A stretch of DNA of 64,000 nucleotides from Desulfocarbo indianensis (GTDB lineage: Bacteria; Desulfobacterota; Desulfarculia; Desulfarculales; Desulfarculaceae), in NCBI GenBank assembly GCA_001184205.1, contig LBMP01000001.1, forward strand, positions 710,001 to 774,000, written 5' to 3'. Made by a program: the position numbers and the translations under genes. The notes under the pieces are model-generated. The model made no database searches. It worked only from the letters and a program-made list of their open reading frames with translations, and was not told the origin of the DNA. Below are positions 1 to 53,434 of this stretch, piece after piece. Every line of letters begins with the position of its first letter. The stretch's first letter is position 1.

Positions 1-2017
<2,017 letters not shown>

Positions 2018-2118
2018 TATACTCCTTATACGGAGCTTTTCAGACTCAGCTAAGACGTTGAAGCTGGGATAAAAATCATCTTCCTACATCGCGCGATTAT
2101 GGAAACTTGAATACAGTT

Positions 2119-2234
<116 letters not shown>

Positions 2235-2242
2235 TTAATCTT

Positions 2243-2276
2243 AAACCCCGTCCGGTTTTTACCGGGCGGGGTTTTT
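2243..2276 (+). terminator. Rho-independent terminator of the rRNA operon
   Basis: A GC-rich hairpin pairs 'aaccccgtccggt' with 'accgggcggggtt' and is followed at once by a T run. It sits ten bases after the 5S gene and would end the rrn transcript. Confidence 0.93.
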
Positions 2277-2353
2277 CCTGTCCTGGGCCTGGATCGCGCT
2301 TAATGGCCGGCGCCGGCCAGCGGGGCGCTTCAATCAGCGGAAAGGTCCGGCCG

Positions 2354-2911
2354 CTAAACTCGCCATTTCCTCACGTCCAGATAATTGCTCAGGAAATAGT
2401 CGTGGTCCTTGTCTGGGATTTCCCCAGTTTCAGTGACAACGTAGCGCGCTCGTCCGGTTTTGCGGGGTTCGTGCTTCAATTGCGCCCTTTGACCCTCCTC
2501 CAATACGCAGATGGTGTACTCGCGGTTGGCTTCATCGTATTCGGTGATTTGCACCTCCCCGCGAAACACCTGGAATTCATCCACGTTCTTGGCCAGCGGC
2601 TTGATGAAAAGATCAGAGCCCAGGTCGTGCTTGCTTTTTATGTAGCAAGACGTGCGATACTTCCCGTTGCGCTTTTCCAGGTTCAGCAGGGCCACCTCGC
2701 CGTAAAGCTCAGGCTTTTCGCCATAGGGAGTATCGATCAGCTTGAATTCTCCATTTCGAGCCAAACGGATGACCTCGCCCACGCCGTTGCGTAATTCGCA
2801 GCGGACGCCGGGTTTGGCCATGGTTTTGGGCTTGGCCATACCGTCAGCCCTGAGCCACTTCAAGCCGGATTTTAGGATATTGCCACTCTCCAAATAGGTT
2901 ACGCGCCACAT
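2354..2911 (-). CDS. Hypothetical protein, 185 aa, family not recognised
   Basis: The product is soluble and charged, beginning MWRVTYLESGNILKSGLKWL, with no signal peptide or membrane segment. I prefer the ATG at 2911 over an upstream in-frame ATG at 2932 because a strong purine-rich Shine-Dalgarno run (gggggaag) lies just before it. The residues after about position 50 look like beta strands alternating with charged turns (for example around GEFKLIDTPYGEKPELYGEV), which could be a small beta-barrel or SH3-like fold, but this is a guess. It stands alone, convergent with the rRNA operon. I do not recognise the family. Confidence 0.75.
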   Translation of the reverse strand: MWRVTYLESGNILKSGLKWLRADGMAKPKTMAKPGVRCELRNGVGEVIRLARNGEFKLIDTPYGEKPELYGEVALLNLEKRNGKYRTSCYIKSKHDLGSDLFIKPLAKNVDEFQVFRGEVQITEYDEANREYTICVLEEGQRAQLKHEPRKTGRARYVVTETGEIPDKDHDYFLSNYLDVRKWRV

Positions 2912-3278
2912 GCTTCCCCCTTTTGCCAACAAGGTTCATAGATTGTAAGCCTTGGACCACGCCGCCCGCCTCACGGCCCGAGCGGCCAATAAAAAAGCCT
3001 TTTTACCAGGGGATTTTGGGGGAAAGGCGGTCTTGACCTTTCCGGCGGCGGGCAGGACCCATATTAATCAGTATGCCGGGGCCGGCGGTTCAAGACAAGC
3101 GGAGATCCCCCCACAAGTTTACGGCCTTGGCGGAACTGGCTGACGGTCTAAAAAGGCGGTCCCGGCCTCATAAGCCTTGCCCCGGCCAAAGCGCGGTTTC
3201 ACCAGCTCGGGCGAATCGATGGTTACTTAGAAACGTTGGCAATATCCGGGTAGTTCCCGGCCCGCCGGGAGGGCACCC
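2912..3278. other. Intergenic region without a recognisable gene
   Basis: Some 370 bases separate the two minus-strand genes. Short plus-strand open frames here have no ribosome-binding site and read as low-complexity translation of GC-rich DNA. The promoter of the 185-aa gene is presumably near 2912-3000. Nothing else stands out. Confidence 0.5.
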
Positions 3279-19896: not shown

Positions 19897-21387
19897 TCAG
19901 CCCTTGATCACGGCCAGGGGACGGGTGCGGACCACTTTGCGGGCCAGGCCGGAGCCGTGCATCACCTCCACCACCTGGGCGGCGTCCTTGTAGGCCTCGG
20001 GCATTTCCTCGGCCAGGGTTTTCAGGTTGGCGGCCCGCACCAAAACCCCGCGAGCGGCCATTTCCTCGGTCAGGCTGCGGCCCCTGGCTTCTTTCTTGGC
20101 CCTGGTGCGCGACATCCGGCGGCCGGCGCCGTGGGCCGAGGAGGCGAAGGTCTCGGCTTCGGCCTTTTCGGTGCCGCAGAGCACGAAGCTGGCCCGGCCC
20201 ATGTCGCCCGGCAGCAAGACCGGCTGGCCAACCTGCTGATATTGGGCGGGAAGCTCGCTATGGCCCGGCCCCAGGGCCCGGGTGGCGCCCTTGCGGTGCA
20301 CCCAAAGCTCGCGGCGCCGGCCCTGCCAAAGGTGGTTCTCCAGCTTGGCCACGTTGTGGGCCACGTCATAAACCAGGCTCAGGCCCAGCTGCGCCGGGCC
20401 CAGGCCCAGGGCGCGCTGCATGGCCTCCCTGGCCAGGTGGGTGAGCGCCTGGCGGTTGGCAAAGGCGTAGTTGGCCGCCGCCGCCATGGCCGCCAGATAG
20501 GCCCTCCCGGCGGGGGAGGCGGGCGGCGCGGCGATGAGCTGCCTATCCGGCGGGCGGATGGCCTCCGGGGATTTGGCCAGGGAGCGCAAGGCATCGTCGC
20601 AGACCTGATGCCCCAGGCCCCGGCTGCCGGAATGAATCCACAGCACCAGTTGGCCCTCGCGCAGGCCGAAAGCCTCGCTGACCCGCTGGTCATAAACCTG
20701 GTCCACCTGGGCTATCTCCAGGAAATGATTGCCCGCGCCCAGGGTTCCCACCTGGCAGGAGCCGCGCTTCAAGGCCCGGGGGCCCACTTCCTCGGGGTCG
20801 GCGCCGGGAAGCGCCCCAAAGGATTCGCAGAACTCCAGATCCGACTCCACCCCCATGCCCCGGCCCACCACCCAGGCCGCGCCCTGACTCAAGACCCTGC
20901 GCAGGTCCTTTTCGCTGAGATTAAGGCCGCCGCCCACCCCCACCCCGGCGGGAATCCCGGCGGCCAGCACGTCGGCCAGGTTCCGCAGTTGGCCGGGGCT
21001 CAGGTCCTGGGCCGAGAGCTTGCTTCGAAGAAGCCGCACCCCGCAGTTGATGTCGTAACCCACGCCGCCGGGGGAGACCACGCCGCCGGCCGGATCAAAG
21101 GCCGCCACCCCGCCGATGGGAAAGCCGTAGCCCTGGTGGGCGTCGGGCATGGCCAGGGAGGGTCCCACTATGCCCGGCAGGGAGGCCACGCCCCGCACCT
21201 GCTCCAGCACCCCCTCGCGGAGCATCTCGGCCAGAAGGGCCTCGCTGGAAAAAACCAGGCCCGGCGAATTCATGCCGACTGCTTGGGGAATCTGCCAGCG
21301 ATAGTCATCTATTTTTATAATATCTGTCATATCAGCGGCTATGGCGTTGCAATCCAGAGAGCCCAAATCCCAGGGCCTTTGAAACAT
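19897..21387 (-). CDS. rtcB: RtcB-type RNA ligase
   Basis: The 496-aa (or 477-aa from an internal ATG at 21330) protein matches RtcB, which seals RNA 2',3'-cyclic phosphate or 3'-phosphate ends to 5'-OH ends with GTP and Mn. Motifs: PDAHQGYGFPIGGV, GGVGYDINCGVRLL with metal-binding Asp and Cys, GTLGAGNHFLEIAQVD, WIHSGSRGLGHQV, SLVYDVAHNVAKLE and VHRKGATRALGPG, the last bearing the His that takes GMP in this family. Neither start has a clear Shine-Dalgarno. Archease, the known activator of RtcB, lies upstream on the same strand at 26198-26617, but the two are separated by a 5-kb insert on the opposite strand. Confidence 0.96.
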   Translation of the reverse strand: MFQRPWDLGSLDCNAIAADMTDIIKIDDYRWQIPQAVGMNSPGLVFSSEALLAEMLREGVLEQVRGVASLPGIVGPSLAMPDAHQGYGFPIGGVAAFDPAGGVVSPGGVGYDINCGVRLLRSKLSAQDLSPGQLRNLADVLAAGIPAGVGVGGGLNLSEKDLRRVLSQGAAWVVGRGMGVESDLEFCESFGALPGADPEEVGPRALKRGSCQVGTLGAGNHFLEIAQVDQVYDQRVSEAFGLREGQLVLWIHSGSRGLGHQVCDDALRSLAKSPEAIRPPDRQLIAAPPASPAGRAYLAAMAAAANYAFANRQALTHLAREAMQRALGLGPAQLGLSLVYDVAHNVAKLENHLWQGRRRELWVHRKGATRALGPGHSELPAQYQQVGQPVLLPGDMGRASFVLCGTEKAEAETFASSAHGAGRRMSRTRAKKEARGRSLTEEMAARGVLVRAANLKTLAEEMPEAYKDAAQVVEVMHGSGLARKVVRTRPLAVIKG

Positions 21388-21603
21388 GATACCAGGCTCA
21401 AAGAGTCAAGGTTAGCCTTTGACCGCCGGAATTTCAGATGGGCAACCCGGCCAGGGCTCGCCAAGGCGGGGAGGACCCGGCCGCGAGGCCGGATAAGGAT
21501 TTGTGACCGCCTTCCGGTGAGACCCGCTGGGGGTTTTGTCCATACTGCCTCCTATGGAAAAACTATCCCCGCGCCATAACGCGGGCGCGAACAGGAGGCG
21601 TAT

Positions 21604-22911
21604 ATGCGCTCTGTGAAAGTACAACACGATTGGCAAGAACAGACCGGGAACGGTATCAATTTGATGCCGGATTTGGAGCCGGTCACGGTTTCCCTGTGCC
21701 CCAGGTTCGATGGCCAGGGCCGTTTCGATTACGACGCCACCATAAGGGAGGTGGAAAATAAGTTGCTGGAGGCCTGGAAGCTCTCCATCGATCTGCGCAA
21801 GCAGGCCCAGGTGCCGGAAGGTTTCGAGGTTTTTCTTAAAGAGGTGGTAGCCGAGACCCAGATCCAAGAAAACTCCGATGTGCTGGGGGAATTTTGTCTG
21901 GACTCGCCGTCCCTGAGCGGAGGGACCCTGGGGCTGGCTTTGGGCCTGAAAATGAGGGAATCCGGCTACGGGTTCAGCCTGGAATGGCTCCCCGGTCCGG
22001 AGGGCGAGTTGGACGGAGCCGCCGTGGTCGAGGCCTTGGCCCAGGCCTATCGGGAGGTATACGCCCTGCCCGGCGGCCACCCGGCTTTCACCGCGGCGCA
22101 AAAAGGCGATCTGGAGCAAAAGGCCCCGGCCTGGGCCCAGGGCCTCTTGCAAGAGGCGGGCTTTGTGCTGCCCAAGGCCGAGGTGGATTTGCAAAGCGCC
22201 GAATGGGTGGATGGCGCGCTACGTTTGTGGATAAACCTGCACGCCGACAAGACAAGCAAGCATGCCTTGCTGGTGGGGGTGAGCGGAGAGGGCGGGGTCG
22301 ATCTTTCCGGCCTGGACCAGGTGGCCGCCCAGATGGCCCAGGAATGGTGCGCCAGCCTGGGAATTGCCAGCGCGCAATGGCTTTGTGCTAAACTGTCGCG
22401 GGAAATCGAACCCGAGGCTCGGGAATACGCCGCCTGGATCATCCAGGAGGAGGACAGGATACGGGCCGAGTTCTGGGCCGCCATGAACCGGGAGCTGGAA
22501 GGCCACCTGCAAAAGGCCGAAGATCTACGCAAGGCCGCCGAGGCCTGGCGGCAGGATTACGATTCCTGGGCCAAGAGCCGCGATCGGATCAAAATACAGG
22601 CGTCCGAAAAGGCCGATGGGGGGGCCGGCGCGGAAATCACCGTCCAAGTAGCCGATATACCCCAAGAAAAAAAGTCGAGCCTGCGGTTGATCTGGGAAGG
22701 GCTTTGCCAATTGCCCGGCGCGGTGGCCAAGGGCATGGAGGGCAAGGTGGATGACATGGCCAAGGGAGCGGAGTTCGGCTTCCGCGCGGGTGGGGTTGTC
22801 GTGTCAGAGGCAGCCTGGATGGTAATAAAAGATGTATTTAATTCCGTTTTATGGGCTGTTGCGCCGGAACCTACCGTTAAGTTTATTGGAAGGAAACTCG
22901 CAAAAAAATAG
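21604..22911 (+). CDS. Hypothetical protein, 435 aa, at the head of the AT-rich island
   Basis: The family is not recognised. The start is supported by aggaggcg. Residues 1-270 mix beta-like and helical segments (an internal weak repetition of 'L..EAGFVLP..EVDL' and 'L..QAQVPEGFEVFL' type). Residues 275-330 are strongly charged and coiled-coil-like (EPEAREYAAWIIQEEDRIRA...). Residues 365-425 are amphipathic to hydrophobic (AGGVVVSEAAWMVIKDVFNS). Codon use is GC-rich like the chromosome until about base 22800, then becomes AT-rich for the last 35 residues and stays so through the following genes. The stop overlaps a Shine-Dalgarno for a micro-ORF, linking it to the island. A polymorphic-effector or bacteriocin-like arrangement is possible but is inference only. 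Confidence 0.75.
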   Translation: MRSVKVQHDWQEQTGNGINLMPDLEPVTVSLCPRFDGQGRFDYDATIREVENKLLEAWKLSIDLRKQAQVPEGFEVFLKEVVAETQIQENSDVLGEFCLDSPSLSGGTLGLALGLKMRESGYGFSLEWLPGPEGELDGAAVVEALAQAYREVYALPGGHPAFTAAQKGDLEQKAPAWAQGLLQEAGFVLPKAEVDLQSAEWVDGALRLWINLHADKTSKHALLVGVSGEGGVDLSGLDQVAAQMAQEWCASLGIASAQWLCAKLSREIEPEAREYAAWIIQEEDRIRAEFWAAMNRELEGHLQKAEDLRKAAEAWRQDYDSWAKSRDRIKIQASEKADGGAGAEITVQVADIPQEKKSSLRLIWEGLCQLPGAVAKGMEGKVDDMAKGAEFGFRAGGVVVSEAAWMVIKDVFNSVLWAVAPEPTVKFIGRKLAKK

Positions 22912-22934
22912 GAGATCGCAATGCAAGTTATGCA

Positions 22935-23087
22935 ATGAATGATATAGATAATCTGTTGAATGTATCGGAAAGAACATTATTTGTTGTTAATTTGATCGGA
23001 GATGTAAATGGCATGGGAGAAAAGGCAATAAATATTAGTGATGAAATATTAAACATTAAAAAGATGGTGTTCGTAAATGGTAAATAA
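22935..23087 (+). CDS. Small ORF of 50 aa, translationally coupled to the 435-aa gene
   Basis: The product starts MNDIDNLLNVSERTLFVVNL and ends VFVNGK. A five-codon micro-ORF (22921-22938) with a ggag ribosome-binding site overlapping the previous stop codon ends in an ATGA that overlaps this start, a classic reinitiation arrangement. Composition is AT-rich like the downstream array. No membrane helix is evident. The family is unknown and expression is unproven. Confidence 0.4.
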   Translation: MNDIDNLLNVSERTLFVVNLIGDVNGMGEKAINISDEILNIKKMVFVNGK

Positions 23088-23121
23088 ATTTAATTAACCT
23101 ATTAATCGGATATAATATTTC

Positions 23122-23553
23122 ATGGAATATGCACATGTAGTGGTAGAAACGACATTAGATGTATTGAGGTTTTTAACTAGCGAATGGCTTTTTTATCGCC
23201 TAGGGCCAGTGTGTTTAGTGGTGGAGAGCTTTATTGTATATAAATACTATGCGCATGAAAAAAAATATAATAGCGTGGAAGAGCGGAAGAAAAGCCTTAA
23301 ATTGTATTGGAAAATAAACGTGGCTAAGTTAGGTTTTATGTTGTGTTTAATTTATCTGCTAATGGATGAAAGTAATAGATATTTATATAACAGAATGTTA
23401 AATTTAATGCTTCTATACTATTTGTTTACATTGACAATTGTAGTGATATCGTTGTTGCCCGTGAGGAATAATGTTAAAGATAATAAAAAATTTTGTTCGA
23501 CAAGACCTGAAGGCAATAAAAACACTGATGAGTTAAAGAACGATTTCAGATGA
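23122..23553 (+). CDS. Small three-helix membrane protein, array copy A1
   Basis: 143 aa. The segment FLTSEWLFYRLGPVCLVVES (about 17-36) is the array signature and forms most of the first predicted membrane helix (about 22-42). A basic loop EERKKSLKLYWKIN follows, then helix 2 (about 66-81, KLGFMLCLIYLL) and helix 3 (about 92-114). The C-terminal tail is hydrophilic and ends DELKNDFR, identical to the end of copy A4. The Shine-Dalgarno is weak; 'tataat' lies about 10 bases upstream. The family is unknown. Size and topology resemble immunity proteins or small membrane effectors, but no homology to a known family is recognised. Confidence 0.8.
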   Translation: MEYAHVVVETTLDVLRFLTSEWLFYRLGPVCLVVESFIVYKYYAHEKKYNSVEERKKSLKLYWKINVAKLGFMLCLIYLLMDESNRYLYNRMLNLMLLYYLFTLTIVVISLLPVRNNVKDNKKFCSTRPEGNKNTDELKNDFR

Positions 23554-23558
23554 GCGAC

Positions 23559-23615
23559 TTGCTTGAATATTTGGGGTAAATTAACCGCTTATACGATCAG
23601 GCTGCTGGTTTGACG
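23559..23615 (+). pseudogene. Remnant of a B-type array gene after A1
   Basis: The same start context as copies B2 and B3 is present (agcgacttgcttgaa) but the frame stops after six codons. Further on, tatacgatcaggctgctgg resembles the tataacgaggttgct of B3. The rest of the gene is gone. This marks A1 plus B1 as the oldest or most decayed unit. Confidence 0.55.
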
Positions 23616-23667
23616 ATTTGCGGAAAATCAATGATATTGGCAGTTAAAAATTATCCTGTGACAACTA

Positions 23668-24066
23668 ATGGAATTTATAGAAGTAGCAAAAAACATTATA
23701 TTGACGCAATACGACTGGTATAAATTTCTAACCAGTGAATGGCTTTATTTTCGCCTGGGGCCGGTGTGTTTAGTGATTGAAAGCATTATTACATATATAC
23801 TTGTCGCAAAGAAAGACGAAAATGAAAGCGCGGAAGAACGTAAAAAAAGCCTGAAATTTTATTGGAAAATAAACATTTGGAAAATAAGTTTCGTGTTATT
23901 TTTAACATATTTAATCCTGAGCGGTAGCGGTAGGTTCACCTATTCCAGGCTCATGGGCATAGTGCTGTTTTACTATTTTTATACAGCGGTGTTAGTGGCC
24001 GCGCTAACAATTTCATTGTTTGCAAAGGTTGTTAAAAAAGCGGTCGGCAAAGATAACATCGAATAA
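23668..24066 (+). CDS. Small three-helix membrane protein, array copy A2
   Basis: 132 aa. It begins MEFIEVAKNIILTQYDWYKF, nearly the same as A4, with the signature FLTSEWLYFRLGPVCLVIES, then a loop AEERKKSLKFYWKIN, and helices at about 67-82 and 92-115. The frame ends at TAA eight codons before the place where A1 and A4 end; the DNA beyond that stop still encodes LKNDFR in the same frame, so a point change has truncated the tail. No clear ribosome-binding site. Function unknown. Confidence 0.8.
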   Translation: MEFIEVAKNIILTQYDWYKFLTSEWLYFRLGPVCLVIESIITYILVAKKDENESAEERKKSLKFYWKINIWKISFVLFLTYLILSGSGRFTYSRLMGIVLFYYFYTAVLVAALTISLFAKVVKKAVGKDNIE

Positions 24067-24092
24067 TTAAAGAATGATTTCAGGTAAGCGAA

Positions 24093-24505
24093 TTGCTTGA
24101 ACATTTACTTAAAATCTATAATCATTATAATGATGTTGCTGATTTTTTAGCCGGTTCATGGCTGTTCGTCCGCTTGGCTCCTGTTTGTTTGGTGGTTGAG
24201 AGCACTATTGCCTACATGCTTACCAAATATAGCGGCGTTAACCAGAATAAAAAAAAATTGAAAAGGGAGTATCTTCAGTATGGAAGTTCTTCTTGGCAAA
24301 GTTATTCTTTTTAATAATGGAATTGCTTGTAATTTTTAGCGAACCTGAAAAAACAGGGCCAAGGTGGGAATTGTATATGATGGTCTTTTATTATATTTAC
24401 ACTCTTGGAATGGTAGTGCTGTTTATATCCTATTTTGTCTCGGGCGACTTGAAATTCAACAAGCCTGGTATTTCCGAGGAAGAAACTACCGACAAAGATG
24501 CTTAA
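24093..24505 (+). pseudogene. B-type array gene with a frameshift at an A9 run (copy B2)
   Basis: Read from the TTG at 24093 the product begins MLEHLLKIYNHYNDVADFLA and carries the variant signature WLFVRLAPVCLVVES, then runs out of frame after the nine-A run at 24249-24257. In the -1 frame the similarity to intact copy B3 resumes (VWKFFLAKLFFLIMELL, then VFYYIYTLGMVVLFISYF) and ends at 24505. It is either a broken gene, a sequencing error in a homopolymer, or a product of slippage on the A run. The TTG start is shared by B3. Confidence 0.7.
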
Positions 24506-24603
24506 AATATTGGCCTTATGGCATGTAGGTAGCTGATGAACTACTAGGACATGTAAGTTGTATAAATAAGTCCAGCAAGTAATTATAAATACAAAATGCG
24601 AGG

Positions 24604-25113
24604 ATGCCTGGTTGGCATATGCTTGAAAAAATTATAGTCGGGACAATTAATATAATAGGAGATTTAATATCCTTTTTGAAGCCGTTGGTGTTTCTGCTAT
24701 TCGATACGCTAAATTATCTAGCTAGCGAATGGCTTTTTTTGAGACTGGGGCCAATGTGTTTAGTAATTGACAGCATTATTACATATATAATTGTCGCAAA
24801 GAAAAATAAAGATCGCATAGCGGCGGAGCGGAAAAAAGCATTTAAATTGTATTGGAAATTCACATTTGCCAAGATATGTTTTGTTTCATATTTAGCGTAT
24901 TTAATAGTAAGTGACAAAGGAGAAATAACATATTCAAGCCTTATGAATATAATGCTGGTATATTACATCTATACAGCATCGCTAGTGCTTTTCTCGACGA
25001 TTTATCTGTTTTTAAGAGACAATAAAAGCGACGACCGAGAGGTAAAAGATATTGCTACGATAAGACGAAAAGGCAATGATGGCAATGAAAGGCCTGGTGC
25101 AAAAATATCTTAG
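24604..25113 (+). CDS. Small membrane protein with N-terminal extension, array copy A3
   Basis: 169 aa from the ATG at 24604; an ATG at 24619 would give MLEKIIVGTIN. About 35 extra residues precede the signature and form an additional hydrophobic helix (IIGDLISFLKPLVFLLFDTL). The core is LASEWLFLRLGPMCLVIDS, then loop AAERKKAFKLYWKFT, helix near 95-112 and helix near 122-145. The tail is basic and diverges from the other copies. No B-type unit follows it. Function unknown. Confidence 0.78.
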   Translation: MPGWHMLEKIIVGTINIIGDLISFLKPLVFLLFDTLNYLASEWLFLRLGPMCLVIDSIITYIIVAKKNKDRIAAERKKAFKLYWKFTFAKICFVSYLAYLIVSDKGEITYSSLMNIMLVYYIYTASLVLFSTIYLFLRDNKSDDREVKDIATIRRKGNDGNERPGAKIS

Positions 25114-25250
25114 ATATGCGACAGATGAATGAAATAATTGAGAGCAAATCAGTAGCCTATATATTGAAAAAAGCGGGGATACACTGAAACGCCACGAGCG
25201 GTAACAGCCCCTCGTTCGAATAATAATCAGAATGAATCTTCTGACGCAAC

Positions 25251-25706
25251 ATGGAATTCGTTGAATCCATAAAAACAATTCTGCTAACTCAATATGAGTG
25301 GTATAAGTTCTTAACCAGTGAATGGTTATTTTTCCGATTGGGGCCGGTGTGTCTGGTGCTGGAAAGTGTTATTGTCTATATATACCTTGCGCGCGAGAAA
25401 GAATATAATAACCAGGAAGAACGGGAAAAAAGCTTTAAGTTGTATTGGAAATTAACCGCTTTTAAAATTGGTTTTATGCTGTATCTGACATGTTTGATAC
25501 TTAACGATACAAGCAGATCTCTATATATTGAACTAATGGGTATAATGTTGGCTTATTATATCTATACAACGGTGCTAGTAATTTTATTTATAATTTCATT
25601 ATTCATAAAAGACACCCAAGATAACGGCAATTGCGAGGAGAGTATAGGTCCGACAATACCGGAAAATAATGATGGTCCTGATGAGTTAAAGAACGATTTC
25701 AGGTAA
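25251..25706 (+). CDS. Small three-helix membrane protein, array copy A4
   Basis: 151 aa, starting MEFVESIKTILLTQYEWYKF, with FLTSEWLFFRLGPVCLVLES, the loop QEEREKSFKLYWKLT, helix 2 near 71-86 and helix 3 near 96-120, and a hydrophilic tail ending DELKNDFR. It is the best-preserved A copy and is followed after only 5 bases by the intact B3 gene, so A4-B3 looks like the functional unit of the array. Function unknown. Confidence 0.82.
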   Translation: MEFVESIKTILLTQYEWYKFLTSEWLFFRLGPVCLVLESVIVYIYLAREKEYNNQEEREKSFKLYWKLTAFKIGFMLYLTCLILNDTSRSLYIELMGIMLAYYIYTTVLVILFIISLFIKDTQDNGNCEESIGPTIPENNDGPDELKNDFR

Positions 25707-25711
25707 GCGAA

Positions 25712-26125
25712 TTGCTTGAACATTTACTTATAATCTATAATCATTATAACGAGGTTGCTAATTTCTTGTCTAGTTCATGGCTATTCCTACGTCTGGCTCC
25801 TGGTTGCCTGGTGGTTGAGAGCACACTAAGCTATCTCCTATGTAAATATGATAAATCACGTAATAGTGTTGCCGAAAAACAGAAGTCGCTGCGGACTTTT
25901 TGGAAATTTATCTTGGTGAAACTAATTATGTTCATTGGTTTGCTCTTTTTAATATATCTCAATTCAGACGAAAAAGAAGCCTACATAAGAGCTTTGGATG
26001 GGATGCCATTTTATTATGTTTATACCTTTGGGGTAATAGTCGTTTTCGTAATCAGCATAGTTAAAAGAAATTTACAGTTTAAAGTGCCTCCCCTGCTCCA
26101 AGAAAAACCAGACGGCAGAGACTAG
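25712..26125 (+). CDS. Small membrane protein, array copy B3 (TTG start)
   Basis: 137 aa, read from a TTG with 'caggtaag' upstream. It begins MLEHLLIIYNHYNEVANFLS, then WLFLRLAPGCLVVES, a loop with AEKQKSLRTFWKF, and hydrophobic helices near 66-86 and 97-118 (FYYVYTFGVIVVFVISIV). B copies have RLAP where A copies have RLGP, and share the LEHLL start. Intact here, frameshifted in B2 and lost in B1. The start choice rests on conservation among B copies. Function unknown. Confidence 0.78.
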   Translation: MLEHLLIIYNHYNEVANFLSSSWLFLRLAPGCLVVESTLSYLLCKYDKSRNSVAEKQKSLRTFWKFILVKLIMFIGLLFLIYLNSDEKEAYIRALDGMPFYYVYTFGVIVVFVISIVKRNLQFKVPPLLQEKPDGRD

Positions 26126-26197
26126 CGGATTTCGGTGGCAGACGCCAAGCCGCTCCCCGCGAGCGCGCATGCATGGCGCCCTTAGCATATCCCCCCG

Positions 26198-26617
26198 CTA
26201 AACATCCAAGATCACATGAGCTTTCCAGCCGGAGCCGCTCCGGCTCACCTGGGCCTCGTGATAGGTGACCGCCTTCACCGGCTCGGCCGGCTCATGCAGG
26301 GAAGGCTGCAAGGGGACGAAGCCCAAACGTGCCTCCAGCGAGGTTTCGCTAAGGCTGCCTATCTCCGCCGCCGCCAGCAAAAGCCCCTCGGCGTCGGACT
26401 GATACACCACCTCGGCCAAAAGCTGCACCAGAAGCTCGGCCCGGTCCAGGCCCTGGGCTTGGAAAGGCTGCCAGGTTAGCCGGCCGTCCCTGGGGCCCGC
26501 GTACATGAGGGTGGCCAAGGCCACCGCCGCCGCGCTGAACAGCTCGGGGGCGCTGTCCGCCTCCACCCACAAACCCAGGTCCGCGGTGTGGGAGCTGGTG
26601 CCGCTTCGGGAACTCAT
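26198..26617 (-). CDS. Archease family protein
   Basis: The 139-aa product starts MSSRSGTSSHTADLGLWVEA, equivalent to the DHxADx metal-binding start of archeases, and ends with VKAVTYHEAQVSRSGSGWKAHVILDV, the family C-terminal motif with metal-binding Asp as penultimate residue. Archease speeds guanylylation and turnover of RtcB RNA ligase. A GGAGG lies 11 bases before the ATG at 26617, so the longer start at 26656 is not needed. On the same strand, rtcB lies downstream but about 5 kb away behind the island, suggesting that an archease-rtcB operon was split by insertion. Confidence 0.9.
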   Translation of the reverse strand: MSSRSGTSSHTADLGLWVEADSAPELFSAAAVALATLMYAGPRDGRLTWQPFQAQGLDRAELLVQLLAEVVYQSDAEGLLLAAAEIGSLSETSLEARLGFVPLQPSLHEPAEPVKAVTYHEAQVSRSGSGWKAHVILDV

Positions 26618-26668
26618 GCCGGGCAAAACCTCCGGAGGCGCGGCCGGGCCGCGCAACGGGGCAATATC

Positions 26669-27556: not shown

Positions 27557-28348
27557 CTACCACAAGCCCAGTTCCCGTAAAGCCTGCAAAGTTATCCGCT
27601 TGGCCCTGGGGCCGTAGGCCTGGTCGGCGCCCCGTAGCAACGCGGCGAAAATATAGACGCCCTGGGGCCGCTCCACCCAGCCGACGAACCAGCCCAGCAC
27701 CCATTTGCCCGCGATCCGATCGGAGCCGGTCTTGCCCCGCAGAAGGGCTTCGCCGCTTTTATCAAGCAAAATAACATCCTTGACCGCCAGCATCGCCTTT
27801 GGGCTCACGGGCAGCTCTTCCCGGTATAGCTTGCTCAGAAAAGCGATCTGCTCGCGGGGGGAGATTTTCAGACTGCTGGAGAGCCAAAAAATCTCCAGCC
27901 CGCCGGAGCTGTCCTGGTTTCCATATGAGAATTCAGCCAGATAGCGCGCCATATCTCGCGGGCCGATCTTGCCGGCCAGGCGCTGGAAATACCAGACCAC
28001 CGAACCGGCCATGGCCGAACGCAGGGTGTGGTCCTTTTGCCAGTGGGGGTAAGCTTGGGGCGAACCGTCCCATTGGAACGATGTGTCGCCATCTTTAAGA
28101 ATCCCCAAATCGAGCCCGATCAGGGCATGGGGTATCTTGAAGGTGGAGCAGGGGGAATAGCGCTGGCCGGCCAGGGCGGGGTTGAGCTGGCAAACATAGC
28201 TGTCGCGCTGGAGGTCATAGACCAGGAGGCAGGCGTCGAACCCCTTTAAAAGCCGGGCGATGTCGGGCTCGGCCGCCGGGGCGGGCGAGGTCAGGTAGGG
28301 GAGCCCGAGCAGGAGCGCAATTAGTATGTAGGCGGTTTTCTTTGCCAT
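27557..28348 (-). CDS. Class D (OXA-type) beta-lactamase
   Basis: 263 aa with a signal peptide (hydrophobic residues 6-20, cleavage after APA near 26). The class D active-site set is complete: YSPCSTFKIP with Ser68 and Lys71, SVV at 116-118, YGN at 142-144, the FWLSSSLKIS segment with the Trp that stabilises carboxylated lysine, and KTGSD at 206-210. It should acylate and hydrolyse beta-lactams in the periplasm. It is far from known mobile OXA contexts and has chromosomal base composition, so it is probably an intrinsic gene. Whether it confers resistance is not known. Confidence 0.93.
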   Translation of the reverse strand: MAKKTAYILIALLLGLPYLTSPAPAAEPDIARLLKGFDACLLVYDLQRDSYVCQLNPALAGQRYSPCSTFKIPHALIGLDLGILKDGDTSFQWDGSPQAYPHWQKDHTLRSAMAGSVVWYFQRLAGKIGPRDMARYLAEFSYGNQDSSGGLEIFWLSSSLKISPREQIAFLSKLYREELPVSPKAMLAVKDVILLDKSGEALLRGKTGSDRIAGKWVLGWFVGWVERPQGVYIFAALLRGADQAYGPRAKRITLQALRELGLW

Positions 28349-51804: not shown

Positions 51805-52275
51805 TTAAAAAGTCCATCCTTCCCGTTCCATAAATCCTTCAATGTTTGTACATTCTATCCCGTAATGTTTGCATACGTTAGGGATTTTAGCCGCATTCGG
51901 TTTGTATTGTTCCATGGTGACAACACATCCATTATTGTGTTTGGCAGATGCGATTACGAACGGGTCAGCAACAGGATTACCTATTAATCTACTTTTCTGA
52001 GGAATTAGATGGCGAAAATGTGGATTTAAAAATATATCAGTCACAAATTTCATTTCATCCTCTGAAGGAGTAAAAAATAATCCAGGATGATCTTTTACCC
52101 AATCATTCATAAATTGGTGTTGAATACGTCTAACTAGTTCTCTTTTAACCTCTCTAACTGATACAATAGAACCATCTGCAATAATTTCATCAAATTTTTC
52201 CCAGAGCGATGGAAATCTACTGGGATAATATTGTTGAAATACATGGAATGCACTTGTATCAAAAGTATATATCAT
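51805..52275 (-). CDS. DUF4411 PIN-like protein, probable toxin
   Basis: 156 aa. MIYTFDTSAFHVFQQYYPSRF has the N-terminal Asp of PIN-like nucleases; further acidic residues lie at REVKRELVRR and NPVADPFVIASAKHNN, then CVVTMEQ. This is the DUF4411 pattern, a group repeatedly paired with ImmA/IrrE-type regulators. It follows the XRE-ImmA gene by 7 bases on the same strand, the usual order. AT-rich and unlike the chromosome. RNA cleavage is family inference. Confidence 0.85.
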   Translation of the reverse strand: MIYTFDTSAFHVFQQYYPSRFPSLWEKFDEIIADGSIVSVREVKRELVRRIQHQFMNDWVKDHPGLFFTPSEDEMKFVTDIFLNPHFRHLIPQKSRLIGNPVADPFVIASAKHNNGCVVTMEQYKPNAAKIPNVCKHYGIECTNIEGFMEREGWTF

Positions 52276-52282
52276 GGCAAAG

Positions 52283-53434
52283 CTATGACTTCAATGCATA
52301 TTCTTCTAAACCAAAAAAACTGGACGATTTAACACTCAAATAATCTGCAGCCTCCTCTAAAGTAATTTTGCCGTCATAGTATCTGTTGAAAACAAGCCGT
52401 AAGTATTTGCTCCCAAGATAGGTTGCTTGTGTTGCATAATAATTGCCTCCCCTTCCCCGGGTCATGTTTTCAAATTCTGATATCCATTTATCTGTAAAAA
52501 ATCTATAATCATCTCTGGATATATAGCCATGATCGTAGAACTTTCTAAGAATAACTTCTCTGCTAACCTTAAACTTTTGAGATATGTCATTAATGTCTTT
52601 TTCATCGAAATTATTTGTTAAATATTGCTGTATGGAATCAGTTGGCACAATAAGTTCAGCAGCGACTCGATTGCAGAATTGTTCAATGCTATGATCTACA
52701 TCAATCGCAGATGTTAAGTAATAATCTTTGGTCTTTGATATGTGGTTATTGTGCAGTAATAGATGGGCAAGTTCATGGGCAATGCTAAAGATTTGTCTGC
52801 TTTTAGAGTTCCCATTATTTAGAAAAATTATTGGATATTTAGAACCATCAAGGCAAAAACCAGATATGCCTTTTTGTTTGAATGATCTTTTAAATACGTA
52901 TATCCCAACATCTTGTACAGAATCACGCCATTCTTTGAGGGCGTCTTCCATTGTCCGCCAACTAATTTGTTGTGAGATATCAATGTCTAAATATTCCCTG
53001 ATTTTATTGGCAGATTCTTTAATTTCATCGTCAACTGAAAGCGCAATATCATTAATAATGTTTTTTTCTCGTTGGTTTTCATCAGCACCCAATTCGTCTA
53101 AAGACAACTGTAGTGATCTGGCGTACCTTAGTGCAAATAAGGTGTCAGCAGATAAATCCTCAATCTCAAAGTCTGGGATTGTTCGGAAAGACTCTTTTAT
53201 ATCGAGCTCTTCTGGCACGTCGGGAAAGAAAAATAAAGCTAATGGCCTTTTGTAAATATCATAGGCCAATTTTTCTAATTGGCCGTAGGTCGGCTGGGCC
53301 TCACCGGTCTCCCATTTTTCTATGATTTCTACGGGTTTGTTAAGTTTGGCAGCTATTTCTTGTATATTGTGCCCAGAGCACTTTCTTGCCCATATGAGAA
53401 TGGCAGGGTTACAAGATGTTGCATAAACGGCCAT
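52283..53434 (-). CDS. XRE-family regulator with ImmA/IrrE metallopeptidase domain
   Basis: 383 aa. Residues 5-70 form a helix-turn-helix (ILIWARKCSGHNIQEIAAKLNKPVEIIEKWETGEAQPTYGQLEKLA). Residues about 175-290 are the M78 peptidase domain with HELAHLLLHNNH as zinc site and NRVAAELIVP carrying the third ligand. The C-terminal 100 residues are helical. It is likely the antitoxin and transcription regulator for the DUF4411 protein downstream. AT-rich composition and a neighbouring recombinase remnant indicate horizontal origin. Confidence 0.92.
   Translation of the reverse strand: MAVYATSCNPAILIWARKCSGHNIQEIAAKLNKPVEIIEKWETGEAQPTYGQLEKLAYDIYKRPLALFFFPDVPEELDIKESFRTIPDFEIEDLSADTLFALRYARSLQLSLDELGADENQREKNIINDIALSVDDEIKESANKIREYLDIDISQQISWRTMEDALKEWRDSVQDVGIYVFKRSFKQKGISGFCLDGSKYPIIFLNNGNSKSRQIFSIAHELAHLLLHNNHISKTKDYYLTSAIDVDHSIEQFCNRVAAELIVPTDSIQQYLTNNFDEKDINDISQKFKVSREVILRKFYDHGYISRDDYRFFTDKWISEFENMTRGRGGNYYATQATYLGSKYLRLVFNRYYDGKITLEEAADYLSVKSSSFFGLEEYALKS

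What the first reader, a model, noticed from the sequence alone, without database searches (positions are those of the whole stretch)
22800..26130. Tandem array of small three-helix membrane proteins in an AT-rich island, family not recognised
Six related units share a strongly conserved core (F-L-x-S-E/S-W-L-F/Y-x-R-L-G/A-P-x-C-L-V-V-E/D-S) followed by a basic loop with YWK/FWK and two more hydrophobic helices. They fall into A-type (RLGP) and B-type (RLAP, LEHLL start, TTG) genes, arranged A1-remnantB1, A2-frameshifted B2, A3, A4-intact B3. The core is more conserved than the helices or tails, so selection acts on it. The array sits downstream of a GC-rich 435-aa gene whose last 35 codons are already AT-rich. 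That layout (large gene, switched 3' end, downstream array of paralogous small membrane genes) resembles polymorphic toxin or bacteriocin loci with an immunity-gene array; immunity proteins of pore-forming colicins are likewise small 3-4-helix membrane proteins. Function is inference; the array and its signature are seen directly.
Basis: partly seen in the sequence, partly recalled or inferred. Interest (0 to 1): 0.85.

Follow-up and report, generated by a model that had tools for sequence, protein, structure and literature searches.

The report
Variable-tip gene with membrane partner array
A small gene island in a sulfate-reducing bacterium carries one large protein whose end has been swapped between relatives, followed by a row of small membrane proteins that change along with it, which is the layout of bacterial weapon genes with their protective partners, although no toxicity has been tested and how the weapon would leave the cell is unknown.

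Summary
The array is real: four A genes, an intact B3, a frameshifted B2 and a 9-codon B1 stub at 23122-26125, with one short core much more conserved than the rest. The island (21388-26197) separates rtcB from archease, genes that adjoin in 12 of 15 relatives' rtcB loci. The large gene upstream belongs with the array: five related large genes (window plus four) all have 3-helix membrane genes next door on the same strand, and a sixth locus keeps only the tip plus one small gene. In relatives the large protein's first 300 residues are 65-96% identical, while residues 350-500 are 8-40% identical. Tip and adjacent small gene change together, and older small genes stay downstream when a new tip plus partner arrives. 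The same N-terminal domain also carries an unrelated beta-rich tip, with a TPR protein as neighbour. This is polymorphic effector-immunity architecture. No known toxin, immunity or trafficking family matched, and T6SS (TssC) and T4SS (VirB4) markers were found in 0 of 6 carriers. Toxicity, immunity and delivery are inferred or unknown. The window's own large gene leaves its frame at an A7 run, so it may be broken, frameshifted or mis-sequenced.

The parts
21388..26197 (.). Island between rtcB and archease
   Evidence: rtcB and archease named by Pfam; within about 160 bases of each other in 12 of 15 relatives with rtcB
21604..22911 (+). Large gene, 435-aa frame
   Evidence: relatives 500-543 aa in the ORF listing
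21604..22143 (+). N-domain shared with other large genes of the family
   Evidence: profile A5
22642..22911 (+). Start of the exchangeable C-terminal tip, AT-rich at its 3' end (boundary approximate)
   Evidence: identity drop after residue about 300-350, GC drop
22908..23087 (+). Open -1 frame (59 codons) after the A7 run 22902-22908, possibly the rest of the tip
   Evidence: chance 0.009; no relative of the peptide found at E 0.01
23122..23553 (+). A1 small membrane protein
23550..23579 (+). B1 remnant, 9 codons, ATG overlaps the A1 stop
   Evidence: sequence, junction repeat D3
23668..24066 (+). A2 small membrane protein
24093..24505 (+). B2, broken between two frames near 24260, just after an A9 run
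24604..25113 (+). A3 small membrane protein
25251..25706 (+). A4 small membrane protein; first row of the AF2 model
25712..26125 (+). B3 intact B-type small membrane protein

Best explanation
The island is a polymorphic effector-immunity locus. Shown: the large protein has a conserved N-terminal part and an exchangeable C-terminal tip; the small membrane genes travel with the tip; in relatives older small genes remain as a displaced array, while in the window the array carries tandem repeats of A and A-B units. Inferred: the tip is the toxic part and acts in or at the inner membrane; each adjacent 3-helix protein sits in that membrane and blocks its cognate tip; older or duplicated copies protect against kin that use other tips; the N-domain serves delivery. 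The delivery route is unknown.
For: Linkage: in the 20 family genomes searched, every small-protein match (5 genomes) lies in a locus that holds the large gene or its tip, and the divergent small trio of G010:C565 follows its own large gene. Swap: G005, G006 and G009 large proteins are 65-96% identical over residues 1-300, 45-73% over 300-350 and 8-40% over 350-500. At DNA level G006 and G005 match at 86% up to G006 position 1283, have no match from 1284 to 2246, then match at 84%. Co-variation: G003 and G009 share the tip (73% over 150 aa) and the small gene (75% over 119 aa). Displacement: G005 and G006 share distal genes c (70%) and d (83%), but G005 has a different tip and two extra small genes between tip and c; G009 keeps the 3' end of d and its downstream DNA at 90%, G003 a 5' fragment of d. 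Shuffling: the N-domains of G010 C565 and C388 are 52% identical, yet C388 has the tip class and TPR partner of C67 and C97, whose N-domains are 15-18% identical to its own. A TPR-like gene follows all three beta-tip genes. dN/dS of c, d and the G009/G003 small gene is 0.20-0.42. Such arrays are described for V. cholerae T6SS (PMC5361080: abstract and one section read).
Against: No toxin, immunity or trafficking family is recognised and no confident fold match exists. No signal peptide is evident by eye in the large protein, and no tested delivery machine is shared: TssC 0 of 6 carriers, contractile sheath 2 of 6, VirB4 0 of 6. Tips are only weakly hydrophobic (best 19-residue window 1.31) and badly modelled (residues 369-520 all under pLDDT 50). 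The 3-helix-class tips are distant homologues of each other (for example window and G006 46% over 68 aa), so part of the divergence could be fast evolution and not exchange. The small proteins keep a conserved core where a specificity surface might be expected to vary, and their dN/dS is no higher than that of the N-terminal part (0.25-0.44). Only six loci of this class are known. The window's own large gene may be broken.
Confidence: 0.62

Rival explanations
1. A phage-defence or suicide module: the large protein is a cytosolic sensor whose tip varies under an arms race, and the small membrane proteins are the effectors that it switches on.
For: No signal peptide evident and no shared T6SS, sheath or VirB4 marker; a membrane partner encoded with a variable partner would also co-vary; presence is patchy (6 of 20 family genomes).
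Against: No PADLOC match for 6 proteins; arrays of up to five partner genes and partners left behind after a tip change are expected for immunity genes, not obviously for effectors; the beta-tip partners look exported by eye, where a cytosolic sensor would not meet them.
Confidence: 0.14
2. A lineage-specific envelope module without conflict: the large protein docks through its C-terminus on a membrane or periplasmic partner, and both have co-diverged.
For: Confined to one family in the samples searched; partners are membrane or exported proteins; weakly hydrophobic tips; purifying selection.
Against: Exchange of tips behind a near-constant N-part between close species, and displaced partners, need a diversifying pressure; patchy presence; different chromosomal sites in the two genera.
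Confidence: 0.16
3. A decaying selfish island in the window: the large gene and B2 are pseudogenes, and the small genes are relics of duplication without present function.
For: Frame breaks in the large gene and B2, B1 reduced to 9 codons.
Against: Five small genes are intact in AT-rich DNA; five other homopolymers of 7-8 in the island lie inside intact frames; relatives have intact large genes; dN/dS 0.27 for A1/A4 and 0.17 for A3/A4, though silent sites are near or at saturation. It would not explain the family-wide pattern.
Confidence: 0.08

Closest known systems
V. cholerae T6SS effector-immunity clusters with orphan immunity arrays (PMC5361080; abstract and the array-model section read)
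   Same: A new effector end plus immunity gene replaces the old effector end and pushes older immunity genes downstream
   Different: No TssC found in any of 6 carriers; unrelated N-domain, tips and partners; the window array shows tandem duplication, which that paper argues against for its own arrays
CDI ionophore toxins CdiA-CT/CdiI (PMC11630599; passages read)
   Same: Helical toxin domain acting in the membrane, with a small polymorphic membrane immunity protein encoded with it; the low-confidence tip model here also has five helices
   Different: CdiI there are 72-100-residue two-helix hairpins; here 119-281 residues with three or more hydrophobic segments; no CdiA parts recognised
Polymorphic toxin systems (Zhang et al. 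2012, PMC3482391; passages read)
   Same: Constant N-terminal part, exchangeable C-terminal tip, adjacent partner, poly-immunity loci
   Different: N-domain, tips and 3-helix partners match no Pfam family above cut-off; [quoted passage not shown]
Pore-forming colicins and their 3-4-helix immunity proteins (recalled; one search listing)
   Same: Small multi-helix membrane partner; a long helix (residues 257-326) before the C-terminal part in the model
   Different: No sequence or fold match found; N-part unrelated by Pfam; a lysis gene was not looked for

Membership tests
Polymorphic toxin systems | Conserved N-terminal part with a C-terminal tip exchanged by recombination | tested here: met
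Polymorphic toxin systems | Small partner gene directly downstream that co-varies with the tip | tested here: met
   Adjacency 6 of 6 for 3-helix tips (G003 tip remnant counted) and 3 of 3 for beta tips; co-variation seen in G003/G009
Polymorphic toxin systems | Displaced or multiple partner genes (poly-immunity) | tested here: met
   G005/G006 c and d, d remnants in G009 and G003; window array
Polymorphic toxin systems | Known toxin domain in the tip | tested here: inconclusive
   No Pfam or NCBIfam match above cut-off; tip model too poor for a fold search
Polymorphic toxin systems | Known trafficking domain or secretion system | tested here: inconclusive
   No known domain; TssC, sheath and VirB4 not shared; other routes not searched, most carriers are draft genomes
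Polymorphic toxin systems | Tip is toxic and the partner neutralises it | not testable with these tools
   needs expression
T6SS effector-immunity pair | T6SS in the same genome | tested here: not met
   TssC PF05943 in 0 of 6 carriers, 1 of 20 family genomes, control genome positive; drafts, so a single absence could be a gap
CDI CdiA/CdiI | Very large CdiA with two-partner secretion parts | tested here: not met
   435-543 aa; no Pfam match above cut-off for the window protein
CDI ionophore immunity (CdiI) | Two-helix hairpin of 72-100 residues | tested here: not met
   119-281 residues, three or more hydrophobic segments; AF2 model
Pore-forming colicin immunity | Sequence or fold relation to a colicin immunity protein | tested here: inconclusive
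   No Pfam match above cut-off, no PDB match at E 0.001 or sequence match at E 1
Known anti-phage defence system | Match to a described defence protein | tested here: inconclusive
   No PADLOC match for 6 proteins; absence from a library does not exclude it

The most novel reading that the evidence does not exclude
A previously undescribed polymorphic toxin family of one family of sulfate reducers: its N-domain (GVxLLPE type) defines a delivery route that is none of T6SS, contractile injection particles or VirB-type T4SS, and it carries at least two tip classes, one guarded by 3-helix membrane proteins and one by exported TPR proteins.
Probability: 0.33. Interest if true: 0.75.

Novelty: new variant of a known kind. 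Interest (0 to 1): 0.57.

Why it matters
If right, it adds a compact (about 500-residue) toxin-immunity family with new toxin, immunity and trafficking domains, in a lineage for which the three literature searches made here listed no such system. It also shows tip exchange and partner displacement between close relatives at one chromosomal site. The missing delivery system is the testable question: the N-domain uses an unknown export route, or the protein is released by lysis like a colicin, or it acts inside the cell. The different partner kinds (membrane, apparently exported) would point to where each tip acts.

Tried and rejected
Known family: Pfam, NCBIfam, PHROGs and PADLOC gave nothing above cut-off for the large or small proteins scanned (PHROGs and PADLOC have no curated cut-off here: one PHROG of unknown function at E 0.037, no PADLOC row at E 0.1). 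Weak Pfam and NCBIfam rows (DUF2569, AgrB, DUF6728, Acyl_transf_3, TetA(P), Exop_C and others) are all below their curated scores.

Fold: the small-protein model gave 17 PDB matches at E up to 10, none at 0.001 or below; best second-look Z 6.6, a level that helical bundles often reach. The large model is poor (mean pLDDT 56) and gave no match at E 0.001; profile matches to ribosomal protein uL6 at E 0.05 and weaker are taken as chance. The absence of a match says nothing about novelty of the fold.

Programmed frameshifting at A_AAA_AAA: the 86 nt from 22900 fold no better than shuffles (z 0.84), so nothing supports it beyond the run itself; not excluded. Sequencing error: both breaks lie at or just after A runs of 7 and 9, but five other runs of 7-8 in the island lie inside intact frames; unresolved.

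B as the type d of relatives: the tree leaves B2 and B3 unplaced. Wider spread: N-domain in 2 of 395 phylum-sample genomes, small proteins in 3 of 395, all in the same family. In one search the row 'win(to 23087)' was translated in frame 0 through stops, so only its residues 1-435 mean anything.
Full report
WHAT IS THERE. The window is G000:C1:710001-774000 of a 5.1-Mb draft genome. Three relatives' contigs are public records: JAHJPG010000079.1, JAHLLJ010000163.1 and JAIPDO010000013.1, the last named Desulfarculaceae bacterium; their lengths equal those of G005:C75, G006:C321 and G009:C98. The family is therefore probably Desulfarculaceae (inference). DNA repeats show tandem duplication (276-nt A unit x4, 164-nt B unit x2, 78-nt A/B junction x3); in the tree A2, A3 and A4 group together (89/96), while A1, B2 and B3 are not firmly placed. 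A 20-residue core has mean pair identity 0.69 against 0.22-0.45 in the other segments. The model of A4 has four helices, mean pLDDT 75.6.

ISLAND. rtcB (19897-21387, minus) and archease (26198-26656, minus) are named by Pfam. Of 15 relatives with rtcB, 12 have archease within about 160 bases of it; in the other three, G001 and G004 show no archease in the stretch held and G010's rtcB is at a contig end. In the window 4.8 kb with genes on the opposite strand separate the two. In a sister genus (G003, G005, G006, G009) the locus lies instead beside cobB (4 of 4) and near dsrB (3 of 4; the G006 contig ends first).

THE LARGE GENE BELONGS. A profile of the window's small proteins hit 5 of 20 family genomes; the large protein hit 6 of 20. 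Five genomes are in both sets (G000, G003, G005, G006, G009); the sixth, G010, has a divergent large gene followed by three divergent small genes with three or more hydrophobic segments. Gaps from large gene or tip to the first small gene are 31-348 bases (the window's 34 is counted from the end of the -1 frame). In the phylum sample the N-domain is in 2 of 395 genomes and the small proteins in 3 of 395, all in this family. In the class the N-domain is in 6 of 63 genomes, one of them (G002) a 41-residue remnant. The genome-contig scan with the large protein, which reaches close relatives only, gave three loci, the three named above.

TIP EXCHANGE. Between G005, G006 and G009 the large protein is 65-96% identical in each 50-residue block up to residue 300, 45-73% in the next block, and 8-40% from 350 to 500. 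At DNA level G006 and G005 match at 86% up to G006 position 1283, have no match from 1284 to 2246, then match at 84% through the distal small genes and the flank. G003 and G009 share the tip (73% over 150 aa) and the adjacent small gene (75% over 119 aa), although G003 has lost the N-terminal part. G005 and G006 have different tips but share small genes c (70%) and d (83%); G005 has two more (a, b) between its tip and c. G009 keeps the 3' end of d and its downstream DNA at 90%, G003 a 5' fragment of d. This is the order expected if a new tip plus partner arrives and pushes older partners downstream, as described for V. cholerae T6SS (PMC5361080, abstract and one section read). The tips of this class remain distant homologues (window and G006 46% over 68 aa, window and G010 41% over 49 aa), so fast divergence may add to exchange.

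DOMAIN SHUFFLING. The N-domain occurs with three kinds of C-terminal part. (i) Helical tip with 3-helix genes: window, G005, G006, G009, G010:C565. (ii) A tip that looks beta-rich by eye, with a TPR-like gene downstream: G010 C388, C67, C97, 3 of 3. The TPR match is above Pfam cut-off for C67, below it for C97, and C388's was not scanned but is 34-37% identical to the other two; signal peptides were judged by eye. (iii) A 643-aa form in G005:C82, split into several frames in G009:C44 and G006:C36, facing PEGA/FGE-sulfatase-like proteins on the opposite strand (one such protein named by Pfam). The C388 and C565 N-domains are 52% identical, but C388 has the tip class and partner class of C67 and C97, whose N-domains are 15-18% identical to its own. 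So the partner follows the tip and not the N-domain. C67 and C97 repeat the pattern inside one genome: N-domain 70%, tip 38%, TPR 51%.

HOW IT MOST LIKELY WORKS. Shown: modular large protein, exchangeable tip, co-travelling partner, displaced and duplicated partners, and dN/dS of 0.20 (G009/G003 small gene), 0.40 (c) and 0.42 (d), against 0.25-0.44 in the N-terminal part; for the window's own pairs silent sites are near or at saturation. Inferred: the tip is toxic and acts at the inner membrane, since its partner is a membrane protein; the beta tip acts in the periplasm, since its partner appears exported; partners are immunity proteins; the array protects against kin with other tips. Unknown: delivery. 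TssC is in 0 of 6 carriers, VirB4 in 0 of 6, a contractile sheath in 2 of 6. Release by lysis, an unknown export route or an intracellular role all remain.

AGAINST. No toxicity evidence, no known domain, weakly hydrophobic tips, a poor tip model, six loci only, and a window gene that leaves its frame at A7 (22902-22908). The -1 frame is open for 59 codons (chance 0.009 in a Markov null), which would fit recent breakage, sequencing error or real frameshifting; its peptide found no relative at E 0.01, and the RNA there folds no better than shuffles. B2 also breaks just after an A9 run. The window's own large protein may therefore not be functional even if the family is.

VERDICT. It works like a polymorphic effector-immunity system, and the genetic features of such systems that could be tested are met. 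Membership is provisional, because toxicity, immunity and trafficking are not shown. It is not a T6SS pair and not CDI by the features tested. Literature: Desulfarculaceae with toxin (8 papers, listing only), Desulfobacterota with polymorphic toxin (none) and Desulfarculus with bacteriocin (3 papers, listing only) showed no description of this locus by title or opening of the abstract; the library holds open-licence PMC papers only.

Noticed in passing
window 27557-28348 (minus): Class D beta-lactamase-like gene: best NCBIfam match bla_class_D_main at 225 bits, just below its cut-off of 250; Pfam Transpeptidase above cut-off.
   Followed up: partly
window 51805-53434 (minus): Second AT-rich patch with a DUF4411 gene directly beside an IrrE/M78-domain gene (both above Pfam cut-off; weak, below-cut-off likeness to the spr1629 antitoxin family), perhaps a toxin-antitoxin pair.
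   Followed up: partly
window 22902-22908 and 24249-24257: Both frame breaks of the island lie at or just after A homopolymers (7 and 9); assembly error and real change cannot be told apart, though five other runs of 7-8 in the island lie in intact frames.
   Followed up: partly
L052 4399-6330; L053 4369-6272; L039 724-2629: Third N-domain form: one 643-aa frame in G005 but several frames in G009 and G006, facing PEGA/FGE-sulfatase-like proteins on the opposite strand.
   Followed up: partly
L038 10091-10869 (minus): Two small frames that look by eye like Nif11-type leader peptides, on the contig of a G010 N-domain gene.
   Followed up: no
L031 8742-10310: About 1.6 kb in G009 without match to G006 between the d-gene remnant and the DUF6125 gene, a further insertion or change at the same site.
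   Followed up: no
window 1-2950: Only short frames that look by eye like those opposite to rRNA; possibly part of an rRNA operon.
   Followed up: no
L054 5827-6348 (minus): 41-residue N-domain remnant in G002, the other genome of the window's genus, near genes that look CRISPR-associated by eye.
   Followed up: no
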